From assembly GCF_016595675.1 (NCBI RefSeq), contig NZ_JAENJH010000004.1:310001-374000 (forward strand): a DNA stretch of 64,000 nucleotides, given 5' to 3'. Every line of letters begins with the position of its first letter. The stretch's first letter is position 1. The position numbers were made by a program, and so were the translations under genes. The DNA is from Prauserella cavernicola (GTDB lineage Bacteria; Actinomycetota; Actinomycetes; Mycobacteriales; Pseudonocardiaceae). The notes beneath the pieces were generated by a model. That model had not been told where the DNA came from. It ran no database searches and was given only the letters and a program-made list of their open reading frames with translations. Below, one piece after another: positions 43,715 through 53,122 of this stretch.

Positions 43715-43749
43715 GCAGCTTGACCGCGACTCAGGAAGGAGGTCGGCCC

Positions 43750-44484
43750 GTGCGGCTCGACCACGAGTTCACCGTCCCGGCGCCCATCGACGAGGTGTGG
43801 AAGGCGGTACTGGACCCCGAACGGGTCGCGCCCTGCATGCCGGGGGCCACGCTGACGTCGGTGGAAGGCGACACCTTCAAGGGCACGGTGAAGGTCAAGC
43901 TGGGGCCGGTCTCCTTGCTGTACAAGGGATCTGGCGAGTTCCTGGAGAAGGACGAGGGCGCGAGGCAGATCAAGATCAAGGCCTCCGGCAAGGACGCGCG
44001 CGGCGCGGGCACGGCCGCCGCGACGGTCACCGTGACGCTCGCGTCGGACGGTGACACCACGAAGGGCGCCGTCGCCACCGACCTGAACGTCACCGGCCGC
44101 CCCGCCCAGTTCGGCCGCGGCATGATCTCCGAGGTCGGCGGCAAGATCCTGGACGCGTTCGCGACCAACCTCGCCGACGAGCTCGGCGCGAAGAGCGCCA
44201 AGGACGAACCCGCGGCTCCCGCGCCGGCGGGTACGGACACCACGCCGGGTCAGGCGGATGCGGCGTCGGCGTCGTCGGGTGCGGCGGGTGCGGCGGCCCC
44301 GCAGGCCCGCCCCGAGAGCGAGAAGCCGAAGCTCGAGTCGGTCAAGCCGGTCAAGGAAGCCGAGGCGATCGACCTCTTCGACTACGCGGGAGCGTCGGTC
44401 GCGAAGCGGCTGGCCCCGGTCGTGGTCGGCGTAGCCGCGGTCCTGGGTGTCCTGGCGATCATCAGAGCCCTCCGCCGCCGCTAA
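43750..44484 (+). CDS. coxG: CoxG-like SRPBCC-fold protein with C-terminal membrane anchor
   Basis: 244 residues. The first ~150 form the CoxG SRPBCC domain: FTVPAPIDEVWKAVLDPERV, CMPGATLTSVEGDTFKG, VKLGPVSLLYKGSGEF, GRPAQFGRGMISEVGGKIL. A linker rich in Ala/Pro/Ser (~155-215) leads to a single transmembrane helix (APVVVGVAAVLGVLAII) and a basic end. CoxG is thought to tether the hydroxylase to the membrane near the quinone pool. The GTG at 43750 has GGAGG eight bases before it; an in-frame TTG at 43720 is less likely. Confidence 0.9.
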   Translation: MRLDHEFTVPAPIDEVWKAVLDPERVAPCMPGATLTSVEGDTFKGTVKVKLGPVSLLYKGSGEFLEKDEGARQIKIKASGKDARGAGTAAATVTVTLASDGDTTKGAVATDLNVTGRPAQFGRGMISEVGGKILDAFATNLADELGAKSAKDEPAAPAPAGTDTTPGQADAASASSGAAGAAAPQARPESEKPKLESVKPVKEAEAIDLFDYAGASVAKRLAPVVVGVAAVLGVLAIIRALRRR

Positions 44485-44532
44485 CGCCCGCACAACCCAC
44501 CCGCCCGAGCCGCGAGCCGCGCACGCGGACCC

Positions 44533-44980
44533 GCGAGTCCCCCGCTCAGGCAGGCGAGTCCCCCGTTCAGGACCGCGAGTCCCCCGCTCCAGCTCGCGAG
44601 TCCCCCGTTCCGGCTCCCGAGTCGCCCGCTTTTGCGTGCGAACTCTCCGTTCGCCGCGCGAGCTCCCTGCCGGAACGCACGAGTCCTGGGCCTGCAGGCG
44701 GAGGCCGGCGCGCGACGCGCGCGCCGGAAGCGTTTCCCTCGCCCATCCTCGCTGACGCCGACCCGAGCTGGTGTCGGTCGCGAGCGGGCCACTCGTGGGC
44801 CGGAGTGGGGGACTTACGCGCCTGCGTGGGGAACTCGCGGTCGGGGAGTGCACGACTAGCGCGCCCGATTGCGCGACTCGTGGTCGCGAGCGGGCAACTC
44901 GAGTACCGGAGCGGGGGACTCGCGTGCCTGGGCGGGGGACTCGCGGGGCCGGGTGCACGACACGCGCTCGCGCGCGGCTG
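44533..44980. repeat. Two-armed array of 21-bp units (array 1)
   Basis: The forward arm has units beginning GCGAGTCCCCCG at 44533, 44554, 44575 and 44596, then diverged units at 44617, 44638, 44658 and 44679: a 21-bp period broken only once. After ~90 bp of spacer the inverted arm has ACTCGC-type cores at 44791, 44812, 44833, 44855, 44876, 44897, 44918, 44939 and 44960, again 21 bp apart. Unit consensus is roughly GCGAGTCCCCCGCTCAGGCxC. The array fills most of the 563-base gap between coxG (ends 44484) and the next gene (starts 45048); ORFs through it read heptapeptide repeats (such as RVPRSGx) and are not genes. The two arms could form one long stem. Confidence 0.92.
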
Positions 44981-45047
44981 CGCCGGGCGTGGGATGGGCC
45001 ACTGCGCCGGCGGGAAGGTGTGCCGGGTGGGGCCGGTTGTAGGCGGT

Positions 45048-46112
45048 ATGCGGGCTGATCACGAGACCGACGTCGCCGTCATCGGCGCGGGGCAGGCCGG
45101 ATTGTCGGCCGCCTACTTCCTGCGCAGGGCGGGGCTGGCCAACGAGACGGGCTTCGTCGTGCTCGACCACGGCAAGCGGGCTGGCGGCGCCTGGCAGTAC
45201 CGCTGGCCCTCGCTCAAGCTCGACAAGGTCCACGGCATCCACGACCTGCCCGGCCTCGCCCTCGGCGACACCTCCGCCCACCGTGACAGCCCGGCGTCCG
45301 AGGTCGTCTCGGCCTACTTCGACCGCTACGAGCGCACCTTCGACCTCCCGGTGCACCGTCCCGTCGACGTGCAATCGGTGAGCCGCACCGACGACGGCCG
45401 GTTCCTCGTCGAGAGCGCCACCGAGTCGTGGGCCGCCCGCGGCATCCTCAACGCCACCGGCACCTGGGACCGCCCGTTCTGGCCGTACTACCCCGGCCAG
45501 GAGACCTTCCTCGGCAGGCAGCTGCACACCGCCGACTACGCGGGCGCCGCCGAGTTCCGCGGCAAGCGCGTCGTGGTGGTCGGCGGCGGGAGCTCCGCCG
45601 TGCAGCAGCTGCTGGAGATCGCGCCGTTCGCCGCCGACACCGTGTGGGTGACGCGCAGGCCACCGGAGTTCCTCGAGCACGAGTTCACGTCCGACTACGG
45701 CCGCGCCGTGGTGGCCGACGTCGGCGAGCGGGTCCGCGCGGGCCTGCCACCGCGCAGCGTCGTCGGGGTCACGGGCCTGGCTCTCACGCCCGAGACGCGC
45801 CGCGGCATCGACGAGGGGATCCTCGACCGCAAGCCGATGTTCCAGCGCGTCACCCCGCACGGGGTCGACTGGGCCGACGGCAGCACCTGGCGCGCCGACA
45901 CGATCCTGTGGGCCACGGGCTTTCGCGCCGCACTCGACCACCTCGCCCCGCTGCGCCTGCGCGGTCACGGCGGCGGGATCCGCGTCGACGGCACCCGCGT
46001 GGTGGACGAGCCGCGTGTGCACCTGGTCGGCTACGGCCCGTCCGCCAGCACCGTCGGCGCCAACCGCGCGGGTCGTTCCGCCGTGCGCGAGCTGATGGAC
46101 ACGCTGGGCTAG
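45048..46112 (+). CDS. FAD-dependent NAD(P)-binding monooxygenase/oxidoreductase
   Basis: 354 residues. N-terminal FAD loop VAVIGAGQAGLSAAYFLRRAG (GxGxxG), the second nucleotide loop VVVVGGGSSAVQQLLE (about residue 180), and ATGFRAALDHL near the end. This is the flavin-containing monooxygenase/thioredoxin reductase-like architecture. Substrate unknown. ATG 45048; the frame is open upstream only through the repeat array and is rejected there. The neighbourhood with the glycine operon gives no functional clue. Confidence 0.88.
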   Translation: MRADHETDVAVIGAGQAGLSAAYFLRRAGLANETGFVVLDHGKRAGGAWQYRWPSLKLDKVHGIHDLPGLALGDTSAHRDSPASEVVSAYFDRYERTFDLPVHRPVDVQSVSRTDDGRFLVESATESWAARGILNATGTWDRPFWPYYPGQETFLGRQLHTADYAGAAEFRGKRVVVVGGGSSAVQQLLEIAPFAADTVWVTRRPPEFLEHEFTSDYGRAVVADVGERVRAGLPPRSVVGVTGLALTPETRRGIDEGILDRKPMFQRVTPHGVDWADGSTWRADTILWATGFRAALDHLAPLRLRGHGGGIRVDGTRVVDEPRVHLVGYGPSASTVGANRAGRSAVRELMDTLG

Positions 46113-50776: not shown

Positions 50777-52048
50777 ATGAGCTCGTTCGACGCTGATCTG
50801 TCCACTGTGGACCCGGAGGTGGCCGACGCGGTCGCCGCCGAGCTTCACCGCCAGCAGTCGACCCTGGAGATGATCGCCTCGGAGAACTTCGCGCCCGCGG
50901 GCGTGCTGGAGGCGCAGGGCTCCGTGCTCACCAACAAGTACGCCGAGGGATACCCCGGCAAGCGGTACTACGGCGGCTGCGAGCACGTCGACGTGGTGGA
51001 GACGCTGGCGATCGAGCGGGCCAAGGAGCTCTTCGGCGCCGAGCACGCGAACGTCCAGCCGCACTCCGGCGCGCAGGCCAACGCCGCCGCGATGGTCGCG
51101 TTGCTGCAGCCGGGCGACACCATCCTCGGGCTGGACCTCGCGCACGGCGGGCACCTCACGCACGGCATGAAGCTCAACTTCTCGGGCAAGCTCTACAACG
51201 TCGTCGCCTACCATGTCGACAAAGAGACCGGGCTCGTCGACATGGCCGAGGTCGAGCGCCTCGCGGCCGAGCACAAGCCCAAGCTCATCATCGCGGGCTG
51301 GTCGGCCTACCCGCGTCAGCTGAACTTCGCGGAGTTCCGCCGCATCGCCGACTCGGTGGAGGCCAAGCTGATGGTGGACATGGCCCACTTCGCGGGCCTC
51401 GTCGCCGCGGGCCTGCACCCCAGCCCCGTGCCGCACGCCGACGTGGTCACCACGACGACGCACAAGACGCTGGGCGGTCCGCGCGGCGGCATCGTGCTCA
51501 GCAGGGCCGAGTACGCCAAGAAGATCAACTCCGCGGTGTTCCCCGGCCAGCAGGGCGGGCCGCTCGAGCACGTGATCGCCGGCAAGGCGGTGGCGCTGAA
51601 GATCGCCGCGAGCGAGGAGTTCCGCGAGCGTCAGCAGCGGGTGCTCGAGGGTGCGCGCATCCTCGCCGACCGGCTGTCCCAGCAGGACTGCGTGTCCGCG
51701 GGCGTCCGGGTGCTCACCGGTGGCAGCGACGTGCACCTGGTGCTCGTCGACCTCGTGGAGTCCACATTGGATGGAAAGCAGGCCGAGGATCGCCTGCACT
51801 CCATCGGGATCACGGTGAACCGCAACGCGGTGCCGTTCGACCCGCGCCCGCCGATGGTCACCTCCGGCCTGCGGATCGGCACCCCGGCGCTGGCCACCCG
51901 CGGCTTCGGTGCCGAGGACTTCACCGAGGTCGCCGACGTGATCGCGCTGGCGCTGCGCCCGGACGTCGACGACGCGACCCAGGCCGAACTGCGCTCGCGT
52001 GTGGACGTGCTCGCGCAGAAGCACCCGCTGTACGCCGACCTGGGCTGA
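50777..52048 (+). CDS. glyA: Serine hydroxymethyltransferase
   Basis: 423 residues. PLP enzyme interconverting serine and glycine with tetrahydrofolate. [34 protein letters not shown] and the PLP-lysine in [14 protein letters not shown] (about residue 229) are complete. Placing it in the glycine-induced operon lets 5,10-methylene-THF made by GcvT be used to turn a second glycine into serine. Followed by repeat array 2. Confidence 0.97.
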
Positions 52049-52215
52049 GCTCGCGGGGGCGACCGCGAGCAGTAGTGAGCACCCGGCCCGGCCGGGGCGC
52101 CGAACCGGCGTCCCCGCCGGGCCGAATGCGTGCGGTGCCCCGCCCGGCCGGGCAACGCCGTCGAGGCGCCCCCCTGGGCGCCTGACTGGGCGCGGCGCGG
52201 ACCGACCGGCGAGTC

Positions 52216-52457
52216 GCGAGTCCCCCACCCCGGCGCGCGAGTCCCCCGCCCCGGCGCGCGAGTTGCCCGCCCCGGCGCGCGAGTTGCCCGCTCAGGCTCG
52301 CGATCGCGCGGCACCCTCCGCCTGCGGCGCCCCGGACCGGGCAACTCGCGGTCTGGAGTGCTGACCTCACGTGCCTGAGCGGGGGACTCGCGTGCCCCAG
52401 CGGGGGACTCGCGAACCGGAGTGCGGGACTCGCGTGCCTGAGCGGGGGACTCGCGGG
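52216..52457. repeat. Two-armed array of 21-bp units (array 2)
   Basis: The forward arm has GCGAGT-type units at 52216, 52237, 52258, 52279 and 52300, exactly 21 bp apart. After ~40 bp of spacer the inverted arm has ACTCGC cores at 52344, 52365 (diverged), 52386, 52407, 52428 and 52449, also 21 bp apart. The unit is the same family as array 1 (GCGAGTCCCCCG... ). It lies between the converging glyA and O-methyltransferase genes and abuts the stop of the latter, so a bidirectional terminator role is likely. The 411-base gap holds no gene; 52049-52215 has GC-rich sequence with GGCGCCCCCCTGGGCGCC-like symmetry. Confidence 0.92.
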
Positions 52458-52459
52458 GG

Positions 52460-53122
52460 TTAGCCCGTTACCAGGGCTATGGCGAGGCCGTCGTAGCCCT
52501 TGGTGCCCACCGTTTGCAGGGCGGTGGCGTCGACGCGCGGCTCCGCCGCCATCAGGTCGGTCATGTGCTGGACGCCGCGCACCGACGCGTCGGAGCTGCC
52601 GGGGTCGGCGACCTTGCCCGCCCGCACCACGTTGTCGACCACGATCACGCTGCCAGGGCGGGTCAGCTCGAGCGCCCAGCGGAAGTAGTCCGGGTTGCTG
52701 GGCTTGTCGGCGTCGACGAACACGAGGTCGAAGGGTGCGGTGTCGCGCAGCTCCGGCAGCGTGTCGACGGCGCGGCCGACGCGCAGGTCGATGCGGTCGG
52801 CGTAGCCGGCGTTCGCGAAGTTGCGGCGCGCGACGTCGGCGTGCGCGGGATCGGCCTCGAGCGTGACGACGCGACCGTCCTTCGGCAGCGCCTTGGCCAG
52901 CCACAGCGTGCTGTATCCGCCGAGCGTGCCGATCTCCAGGATCGTGCGGGCGCGGGCGATGCGGGCGAGCAGGTAGAGGAACTTGCCTTGGTTGGGGGCG
53001 ACGGCGATGGCGGGCAGCCCGGCGTCGTCGCTGGCCTTCAGCGCGGCGTCGAGCGCGGGGTCGGACGGAACGAGCTGCGTGGCGAAGTAGTTGTCGACGG
53101 CGTCCCAGGTTTGCTGCGTCAT
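52460..53122 (-). CDS. O-methyltransferase, SAM-dependent (family 3)
   Basis: 220 residues. SAM loop LEIGTLGGYSTLWLAKAL (about residue 62), acidic residue in VVTLEADPAHADVARRN, and metal/substrate region FVDADKPSNPDYFRWAL with IVVDNVVRAG. Matches catechol/caffeoyl-CoA O-methyltransferase-like enzymes using Mg2+. ATG at 53122; an upstream in-frame ATG 14 codons earlier lacks a ribosome site. Substrate unknown. Confidence 0.9.
   Translation of the reverse strand: MTQQTWDAVDNYFATQLVPSDPALDAALKASDDAGLPAIAVAPNQGKFLYLLARIARARTILEIGTLGGYSTLWLAKALPKDGRVVTLEADPAHADVARRNFANAGYADRIDLRVGRAVDTLPELRDTAPFDLVFVDADKPSNPDYFRWALELTRPGSVIVVDNVVRAGKVADPGSSDASVRGVQHMTDLMAAEPRVDATALQTVGTKGYDGLAIALVTG

What the first reader, a model, noticed from the sequence alone, without database searches (positions are those of the whole stretch)
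44533..44980. Phased 21-bp repeat array with an inverted second arm, after coxG
Forward units begin at 44533, 44554, 44575 and 44596, and the inverted cores recur at 21-bp steps from 44791 to 44960 (one 22-bp step). Exact 21-bp register in both arms, two DNA helical turns, is not explained by coding sequence or by a simple terminator. The two arms would pair as a long imperfect stem in RNA or a cruciform in DNA. Possible roles: strong transcription stop, RNA stability element, binding platform for a nucleoid or partition protein, or a non-autonomous repetitive element. This is the least explained structure in the window.
Basis: seen in the sequence. Interest (0 to 1): 0.75.

Follow-up and report, generated by a model that had tools for sequence, protein, structure and literature searches.

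The report
Species-specific repeat arrays at gene ends
Many gene ends in this soil bacterium and its relatives carry phased 21-base repeat arrays, often in facing pairs, whose outermost copies mostly share one core sequence in a genome and a different one in related species; they appear to take the place of ordinary transcription stop signals.

Summary
The array after coxG is real and is one of at least 38 such loci in this genome, a Prauserella species judging by its relatives. Units share a 14-bp frame, CGAGT-N4-C-RYTC, in 21-bp register. In three Prauserella genomes all 57 neighbouring opposite arms face inward, and most arms begin shortly after a stop codon. Four genomes of the genus carry an array at this gene end, with cores CCCCC, CGTGC, CCCCC/TGTGC and TCCGC. 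Related arrays occur in other Pseudonocardiaceae. Outermost units mostly carry the genome's main core, inner units other types. Array-less convergent gene ends mostly have strong hairpins; three of three array-less orthologues with space have one. The strand entering an arm is A/C-rich over about 100 nt in G000 and G001, with flat controls, but only 20-40 nt in two other genera. Native arms pair no better than swapped ones. My best explanation is a bidirectional, probably factor-dependent terminator or insulator, read by an unidentified factor whose specificity has changed between species. Termination is inferred, not shown. I found no published description.

The parts
43720..44484 (+). coxG (CO dehydrogenase subunit G family), the gene whose end carries the left arm; stop codon TAA
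   Evidence: Pfam COXG 5.3e-19; ORF
44485..44531 (+). Stop-to-array linker, C-rich and without any T; contains a degenerate unit in register at 44511-44531
   Evidence: sequence, unit scan
44532..44638 (+). Left arm: five 21-bp units, cores at 44534, 44555, 44576, 44597, 44618 (CCCCC, CCCCC, CCCCC, CCCCC, CGCCC)
44639..44774 (.). Degenerate inner units of the left arm and the centre between the arms
44775..44945 (-). Right arm, inverted: eight units read on the minus strand from 44943 inward (CCCCC, CCCCC, TGCCC, CGCGC, CGTGC, TCCCC, CCCCC, GGCCC), one 22-bp step
44946..44966 (-). Degenerate unit (GTGTCGTGCACCC type) outside the right arm
45048..46112 (+). Next gene, FAD-dependent oxidoreductase; the element lies between two genes in tandem
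   Evidence: Pfam Pyr_redox_3 1.7e-25
52215..52303 (+). Second element in the window, left arm: four units, 167 nt after a serine hydroxymethyltransferase gene (50777-52048, +)
   Evidence: TRF, PWM scan, gap, Pfam SHMT
52328..52455 (-). Second element, right arm: starts 5 nt from the stop codon of an O-methyltransferase gene (52460-53122, -); convergent pair

Best explanation
The element is a bidirectional transcription terminator/insulator built of phased repeats. Shown: most arms sit shortly after stop codons, they face inward in pairs in Prauserella, many gene ends are shared across species, arrays occupy the slot of hairpin terminators, and in G000 and G001 each side is entered through about 100 nt of A/C-rich, G/T-poor sequence. 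Inferred: a sequence-specific factor binds the 14-bp cores, which recur every two helical turns. RNA polymerase arriving from a gene, or antisense from the other side, stalls there, and a Rho-type factor loaded on the unstructured C-rich RNA upstream releases it. The main core differs between species because arrays and the factor change together. Arrays are renewed mostly at the gene-proximal end, which leaves older cores inside.
For: Location: same-strand stop codons lie within 60 nt of 33 of 45 arms in G001, 18 of 28 in G002 and 55 of 94 in G000, and within 14 nt of 30, 15 and 27 of them (the 94 include overlapping calls, 77 after merging). In genus g66 (G070) it is 12 of 15 within 32 nt, in G153 6 of 13 within 13 nt. 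Of 57 neighbouring opposite arms within 700 bp, 57 face inward; by flanking genes 26 are convergent, 30 tandem, 1 divergent. Terminator slot: array-less convergent gene ends with at least 70 nt to the next gene have a hairpin of -20 kcal/mol or better in 75% (n=28, G000) and 70% (n=20, G001), against 17% and 19% of shuffles, which were made from convergent and tandem ends together; 37 G000 array ends start under 25 nt from the stop, as do 31 of 33 in G001 and 17 of 18 in G002 (distances). Three array-less orthologues with at least 60 nt to the next gene have hairpins of -33.7, -34.1 and -35.8. Zone: A+C falls from 0.68 to 0.47 (G000) and 0.60 to 0.48 (G001) with distance, also on sides without a gene end; controls stay near 0.50. 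The best 78-nt C/G ratio in G000 is 1.45 (gene ends) and 1.87 (other sides) against 1.12 (p 2e-9, 1e-8). Positions: 8 of 20 G001 stretches and 6 of 12 G002 stretches chosen from their own arrays fall on gene ends that also carry a G000 array. Trans factor: outer cores are shared across a genome and differ between genomes while spacers vary by arm.
Against: No transcript data, so termination is not demonstrated, and no binding factor was identified. The A/C zone is weak in G002 (C/G p 0.11; its 6 no-gene sides show no clear gradient), confined to about 40 nt in G070 and 20 nt in G153, and coxG itself has C 0.37 and G 0.35 in its last 75 nt. TAA enrichment is strong only in G000 (30 of 52 against 20 of 515; G001 7 of 33, G002 2 of 18). 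In G277 and G232 (genera g15, g26) most arms lie far from stops or face outward. Of the six G000 arrays that start 50 nt or more after the stop, four follow a hairpin of -20 or better. Arms without a same-strand gene end (28 of 94, 11 of 45, 6 of 28) need the antisense-block argument. Tandem array-less gene ends are hardly richer in hairpins at -15 than shuffles (0.59 against 0.57 in G000, 0.62 against 0.50 in G001).
Confidence: 0.45

Rival explanations
1. Selfish or REP-like extragenic repeat: the arrays are mobile or self-copying short repeats, tolerated at gene 3' ends, with inverted arms as the ends of the mobile unit and an unidentified enzyme copying the current core.
For: Dispersed, at least 38 loci in one genome; convergent and tandem but rarely divergent positions, as published for REPs (PMC3733652, abstract and passages); sharp canonical outer ends; in G277 arrays lie inside a dispersed repeat of about 550-650 bp with about 58-bp terminal inverted repeats (read by eye in the alignment), at 6 of the 7 fetched loci.
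Against: Many positions are shared between species at 80-93% identity; spacers differ from arm to arm; PF01797 was found in 0 of 4 Prauserella and 1 of 15 array-rich genomes, the four included; the nine proteins looked at between or beside separated arms include no recognisable transposase by eye.
Confidence: 0.21
2. Giant RNA stem: the two arms pair in mRNA, forming a long hairpin that stops transcription or protects the 3' end.
For: RNA fold of the coxG element z -9.75; arms nearly abut in G001 (median gap 7 nt), where the 60-nt hairpin across the junction is stronger than shuffled (-34.5 against -29.6, n=17); stem-compatible G-U pairs within units on the sense strand.
Against: Native arms pair no better than swapped arms (-105.9 against -105.2 in G000; -94.7 against -102.7 in G001, where a fraction of 1.000 of 2000 permutations pair at least as well; G002 0.924). 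Junction hairpins do not beat shuffles in G000 and G002, and single arms and cores are close to shuffles. 17 of 77 G000 arm calls are unpaired, some of them fragments of a neighbouring arm. Many G277 and G232 arms run in the reverse orientation relative to the gene.
Confidence: 0.13
3. A recurrent DNA event at the outer edge (nicking, repair synthesis, or outward transcription) produces both the outward G/T-rich strands and the polar turnover; the array is a DNA processing or replication-associated site.
For: In G000 the A+C bias peaks at the outer edge and decays both ways, on sides with and without a gene end; third codon positions move most, with less G and T and more A and C.
Against: First codon positions and the array units also gain C at the cost of G, a transversion that simple deamination does not give; the bias varies in strength between species although arrays are dense in each.
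Confidence: 0.1
4. Species tag: the cores act like a DNA-uptake or transfer signal with species dialects, amplified by biased uptake.
For: Genome-wide main core on a conserved frame that differs between species, as for DUS dialects (PMC3630211, abstract).
Against: 21-bp arrays anchored at stop codons are not expected; no uptake role was tested.
Confidence: 0.05

Closest known systems
REP / BIME / REPIN extragenic palindromic repeats
   Same: Many copies, extragenic, after genes, between convergent or same-direction genes, often as inverted pairs (PMC3733652 abstract and passages; PMC3116915 abstract and outline).
   Different: REPs are 20-40-bp palindromes with a GTAG or CGTC tag (PMC3733652); here tandem 21-bp direct repeats in two arms; no RAYT found in Prauserella; the core changes between species at shared positions; the unit is not a stable hairpin.
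Rho-dependent terminators
   Same: About 78 nt of C>G sequence followed by a stall region (definition from PMC6407284, passages).
   Different: A phased repeat array is not part of that definition; the zone is on both sides and weak in some species; Rho dependence untested.
Intrinsic (hairpin) terminators
   Same: Same position after the stop codon; the two appear to alternate at gene ends.
   Different: No compact hairpin with a T run in 44300-45200; phased repeats instead.
DNA uptake sequence dialects (Neisseriaceae)
   Same: Genome-wide motif with species dialects (PMC3630211, abstract).
   Different: Not tandem, not phased, not anchored at stop codons (recalled); uptake not testable here.
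CRISPR arrays
   Same: Regular repeats with the newest unit usually at one end (analogy, recalled).
   Different: No cas link examined, 7-nt spacers, dozens of loci, two inverted arms; analogy only.

Membership tests
REP/REPIN | Extragenic, mostly convergent or tandem, rarely divergent | tested here: met
   26 convergent, 30 tandem, 1 divergent of 57 pairs; 5 of the 57 have a called gene between the arms
REP/REPIN | Associated RAYT (Y1 transposase, PF01797) in the genome | tested here: not met
   0 of 4 Prauserella, 1 of 15 array-rich genomes (a partial match), 3 of 15 without arrays; the CGTC class of REPs also lacks a known transposase (PMC3733652)
REP/REPIN | Unit folds as a hairpin with a GTAG or CGTC tag | tested here: not met
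   14-nt sense core -0.93, -0.83, -1.27 kcal/mol against shuffled -0.70, -0.98, -0.58; antisense -1.77, -1.61, -2.07; frame is GAGT
Intrinsic terminator | GC-rich stem-loop followed by a T run | tested here: not met
   none found in 44300-45200; not run on the other loci
Rho-dependent terminator | About 78 nt with C>G upstream | tested here: inconclusive
   clear in G000 (p 2e-9), weaker in G001 (p 1e-3), not significant in G002 (p 0.11)
Rho-dependent terminator | Termination lost when Rho is inhibited | not testable with these tools
   needs an experiment
DNA uptake sequence | Promotes uptake of own DNA | not testable with these tools
   needs an experiment
MITE (inverted-repeat transposon) | Mobile: insertion sites differ between relatives, with target duplications | tested here: inconclusive
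   many sites are shared, some differ; target duplications looked at only by eye in a few flanks
Known RNA family | Match to an Rfam model at the gathering score | tested here: not met
   two hits far below the cut-off, E 0.5-0.6

The most novel reading that the evidence does not exclude
A new class of transcription terminator in Pseudonocardiaceae: phased, mostly bidirectional repeat arrays read by an unknown DNA- or RNA-binding factor whose specificity changes from species to species. The arrays are rewritten genome-wide from their gene-proximal ends while many of their positions stay fixed. It would be a termination code that drifts like a dialect.
Probability: 0.28. Interest if true: 0.88.

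Novelty: new variant of a known kind. Interest (0 to 1): 0.72.

Why it matters
How GC-rich actinobacteria stop transcription without T-run terminators is poorly known (recalled). If these arrays are terminators, they give a countable set of sites, an apparent exchange with hairpins at the same gene ends, and a recognition core that can be swapped between species to find the factor. The change of a genome's main core at shared positions would also be an unusual case of concerted evolution in bacteria. The arrays also create spurious ORFs, and in some draft genomes they lie at contig ends.

Tried and rejected
Coding sequence: 21 bp is seven codons and ORFs cross both arms, but arms are inverted, steps of 19, 20, 22, 41 and 43 bp break the frame, and conserved positions are not codon-like. 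Unit as RNA hairpin: GAGT/RYTC could pair with G-U wobble, but sense cores fold close to shuffles (antisense about 1 kcal/mol better) and many G277 and G232 arms run in reverse. Arm-arm stem as the selected feature: not supported by swapping or by flavour and spacer permutation (p 0.41 to 1.0). RAYT-driven REPIN. Genes between arms as the trans factor: nine proteins looked at by eye, ordinary. Rfam, plasmids, phages: nothing. Strict age polarity: rejected as absolute, since the coxG copy and one G002 arm (L265) have other units outside the main type. TAA enrichment as a general feature: mainly G000. The family count of 55 of 297 genomes includes some matches that look like coding or 7-bp repeats (G301, G314, G278, part of G164); 15 genomes besides the window's own have 20 or more matches. 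In one search the G001 count of array ends came out as 0 because gene coordinates of a retrained model did not match; I use the distances instead.

Not found in print: library searches (listings only seen; passages of PMC4210621) gave no description; others were for REPIN, DUS and Rho.

Full report
OBSERVATION. Four forward cores start at 44533, 44554, 44575 and 44596 and inverted units fill 44775-44945 with one 22-bp step. A second element of the same kind lies at 52215-52455. On the 603-kb contig that holds the window, a scan for 21-bp periodicity that ignores the sequence finds 10 arms in 5 elements, and none at 16, 17, 19, 20, 22-26 or 33 bp; a few other places show 15, 18, 27 or 30 bp.

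GENOME-WIDE. GCGAGTCCCCCGCTC with up to two mismatches occurs 215+203 times in the genome, against 31+18 for the reversed control. The listed places, cut at 100 and all exact, fall into 38 loci: two in the window, 36 fetched. In these 37 sequences 361 steps are exactly 21 bp; the next commonest is 42 bp, with 11. Neighbour-unit frequencies give the frame C-GAGT-N4-C-R-Y-T-C-N-R-G.

ANATOMY AND POSITION. Many arms begin abruptly with canonical units just after a stop codon of the gene on the same strand. With one detector, same-strand stops lie within 60 nt of 55 of 94 arms (G000; 77 after merging overlapping calls), 33 of 45 (G001) and 18 of 28 (G002), mostly 3-14 nt in G001 and G002. Neighbouring arms within 700 bp face inward in 57 of 57 opposite pairs; 6 further neighbours in G000 run in the same direction. 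Flanking genes are convergent in 26 pairs, tandem in 30 and divergent in 1. In another genus (G070) 12 of 15 arms follow a stop within 32 nt; in G153 it is 6 of 13 within 13 nt, and one pair of neighbours there faces outward. In G277 and G232 most arms do not follow the rule, and in G277 they lie inside a dispersed repeat of about 550-650 bp with terminal inverted repeats, at 6 of 7 fetched loci.

A CORE THAT CHANGES BETWEEN SPECIES. At the coxG gene end all four genomes of the genus have arrays with different cores: CCCCC in G000, CGTGC in G001, CCCCC outside and TGTGC inside in G002, TCCGC in G003. Over the compared stretches G001 and G002 are 92.8% identical, both about 86.5% to G000, and all about 80% to G003. 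Contig lengths identify G002 with Prauserella endophytica. Across the family, 55 of 297 genomes match a general pattern and 15 besides the window's own have 20 or more matches; where places were listed, centres differ between many genomes (TCGAC, TCCAC, CCGAC, CCCCG, TGGCC and others), while some are shared (CCCAC in several, CCCCC in G070). Reversed-pattern hits occur in 10 genomes, at most 19. Among 158 other genomes of the phylum, five of them from the same order, there is none. Within a genome the 7-nt spacers vary by arm while the outer core is shared, which points to a factor acting in trans rather than copying of whole units.

POLARITY. The genome's main core fills 115 of 160 outer-two positions and 40 of 249 from the fifth unit inward in G000; 75 of 90 and 30 of 69 in G001; 44 of 56 and 12 of 68 in G002. 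In G070, unit 1 is CCCCC in 14 of 15 arms and unit 3 is TCTGC in 7 of 15; in G153 unit 1 is CCCAC in 9 of 13. At the two window loci, orthologous G001 and G002 arms share inner spacers and differ in outer units. Exceptions: both arms of the coxG element and one G002 arm have other units outside. Whether the order reflects age or function is not settled.

SHARED POSITIONS. Of 20 G001 stretches and 12 G002 stretches chosen from their own arrays, 8 and 6 fall on gene ends that also carry an array among the G000 loci. In a wider comparison 47 of 55 orthologous gene ends have an array, but most of that sequence was fetched because it holds arrays, so the fraction overstates retention.

TERMINATOR SLOT. 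Array-less convergent gene ends with at least 70 nt to the next gene carry a hairpin of -20 kcal/mol or better within 70 nt in 75% (n=28, G000) and 70% (n=20, G001), against 17% and 19% of shuffles (made from convergent and tandem ends together); tandem ends do so in 29% and 27%. 37 G000 array ends start under 25 nt from the stop. Of the 8 gene ends scored without array, one (L054) is a degenerate arm that the unit detector does find. Four have at most 34 nt to the next gene (an operon, a tandem gene, and both sides of one 10-nt convergent gap in G003). The three with at least 60 nt all have strong hairpins soon after the stop (-33.7, -34.1, -35.8).

LOADING ZONE. On the strand entering an arm, A+C falls from 0.68 at the edge to 0.47 at -200 in G000, 0.60 to 0.49 in G001 and 0.58 to 0.50 in G002; the same holds on sides with no gene end in G000 (n=22) and G001 (n=10) but not clearly in G002 (n=6). 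Controls at array-less gene ends and upstream regions stay near 0.50 in G000 and G001. In G070 the bias reaches about 40 nt and in G153 about 20 nt (n=12 and 6). Inside the array it fades over about three units in G000 and more slowly in G002. In G000 it reaches codons: TAA stops in 30 of 52 arm-bearing genes against 20 of 515, and third-position A from 0.02 to 0.20 over the last 20-30 codons. TAA is 7 of 33 against 14 of 355 in G001 and 2 of 18 against 5 of 123 in G002. The C/G test is strong in G000, moderate in G001 and not significant in G002.

RNA STRUCTURE. The coxG element as RNA folds far better than shuffles (z -9.75), as an inverted repeat would. Swapping arms between elements shows no preference for the native partner in G000, and in G001 native arms pair worse, perhaps because long perfect palindromes are not tolerated (inference). 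Single arms fold about as well as shuffles; the hairpin across the junction beats shuffles only in G001.

MECHANISM. I take the arrays to be bidirectional terminators or insulators. Shown: position, orientation, apparent exchange with hairpins, compositional zones in the genus, cores that differ between species. Inferred: a bound factor that stalls polymerase, Rho-type release, and co-change of factor and core. The factor is unknown.

KNOWN RELATIVES. REPs share the genomic position (PMC3733652, abstract and passages; the word actinobacteria does not occur in its main text) but differ in hairpin, tag and RAYT. DUS dialects (PMC3630211, abstract and outline) share the dialect idea only. The Rho motif definition is from PMC6407284 (passages). 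PMC3116915 was seen as abstract and outline. The library searches named in Tried and rejected gave no description of these arrays.

Noticed in passing
window 52215-52455: A second element of the same family between convergent serine hydroxymethyltransferase and O-methyltransferase genes; in G001, G002 and G003 another reading frame (a GntR-like regulator by eye) lies between SHMT and this place, and in G003 the gap is 10 nt with no array.
   Followed up: yes
L213-L215, L217-L219 (G277): A dispersed repeat of about 550-650 bp with about 58-bp terminal inverted repeats (GCACGTGAAGGCCACCTTCAC...) that carries several 21-bp arrays of different cores inside it.
   Followed up: partly
G000 arm-bearing genes in the window and L031-L066: TAA stop codons in 30 of 52 arm-bearing genes against 20 of 515 in contig C44, and a gradient of A at third codon positions over the last 20-30 codons, strong in this species.
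   Followed up: partly
G000 and G001 arm-bearing genes: Bodies of arm-bearing genes use relatively more G- than C-ending codons than other genes (median GC3 skew -0.002 against -0.089 in G000, p 1e-6; -0.033 against -0.078 in G001, p 0.015).
   Followed up: no
L235 near 4792 (G001): A perfect hairpin AGGCCACCTTCACTGCG...CGCAGTGAAGGTGGCCTT just after a stop codon, resembling the ends of the G277 repeat.
   Followed up: no
L231 10020-10356 (G232): A run of 16 very similar 21-bp units in reverse orientation after a gene, facing outward, between convergent genes.
   Followed up: no
L238, L241, L242 (G001, outermost units): A few G001 arms carry CCCCC or CGCCC in the outermost unit, as if the core type of G000 and G002 were just arriving.
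   Followed up: no
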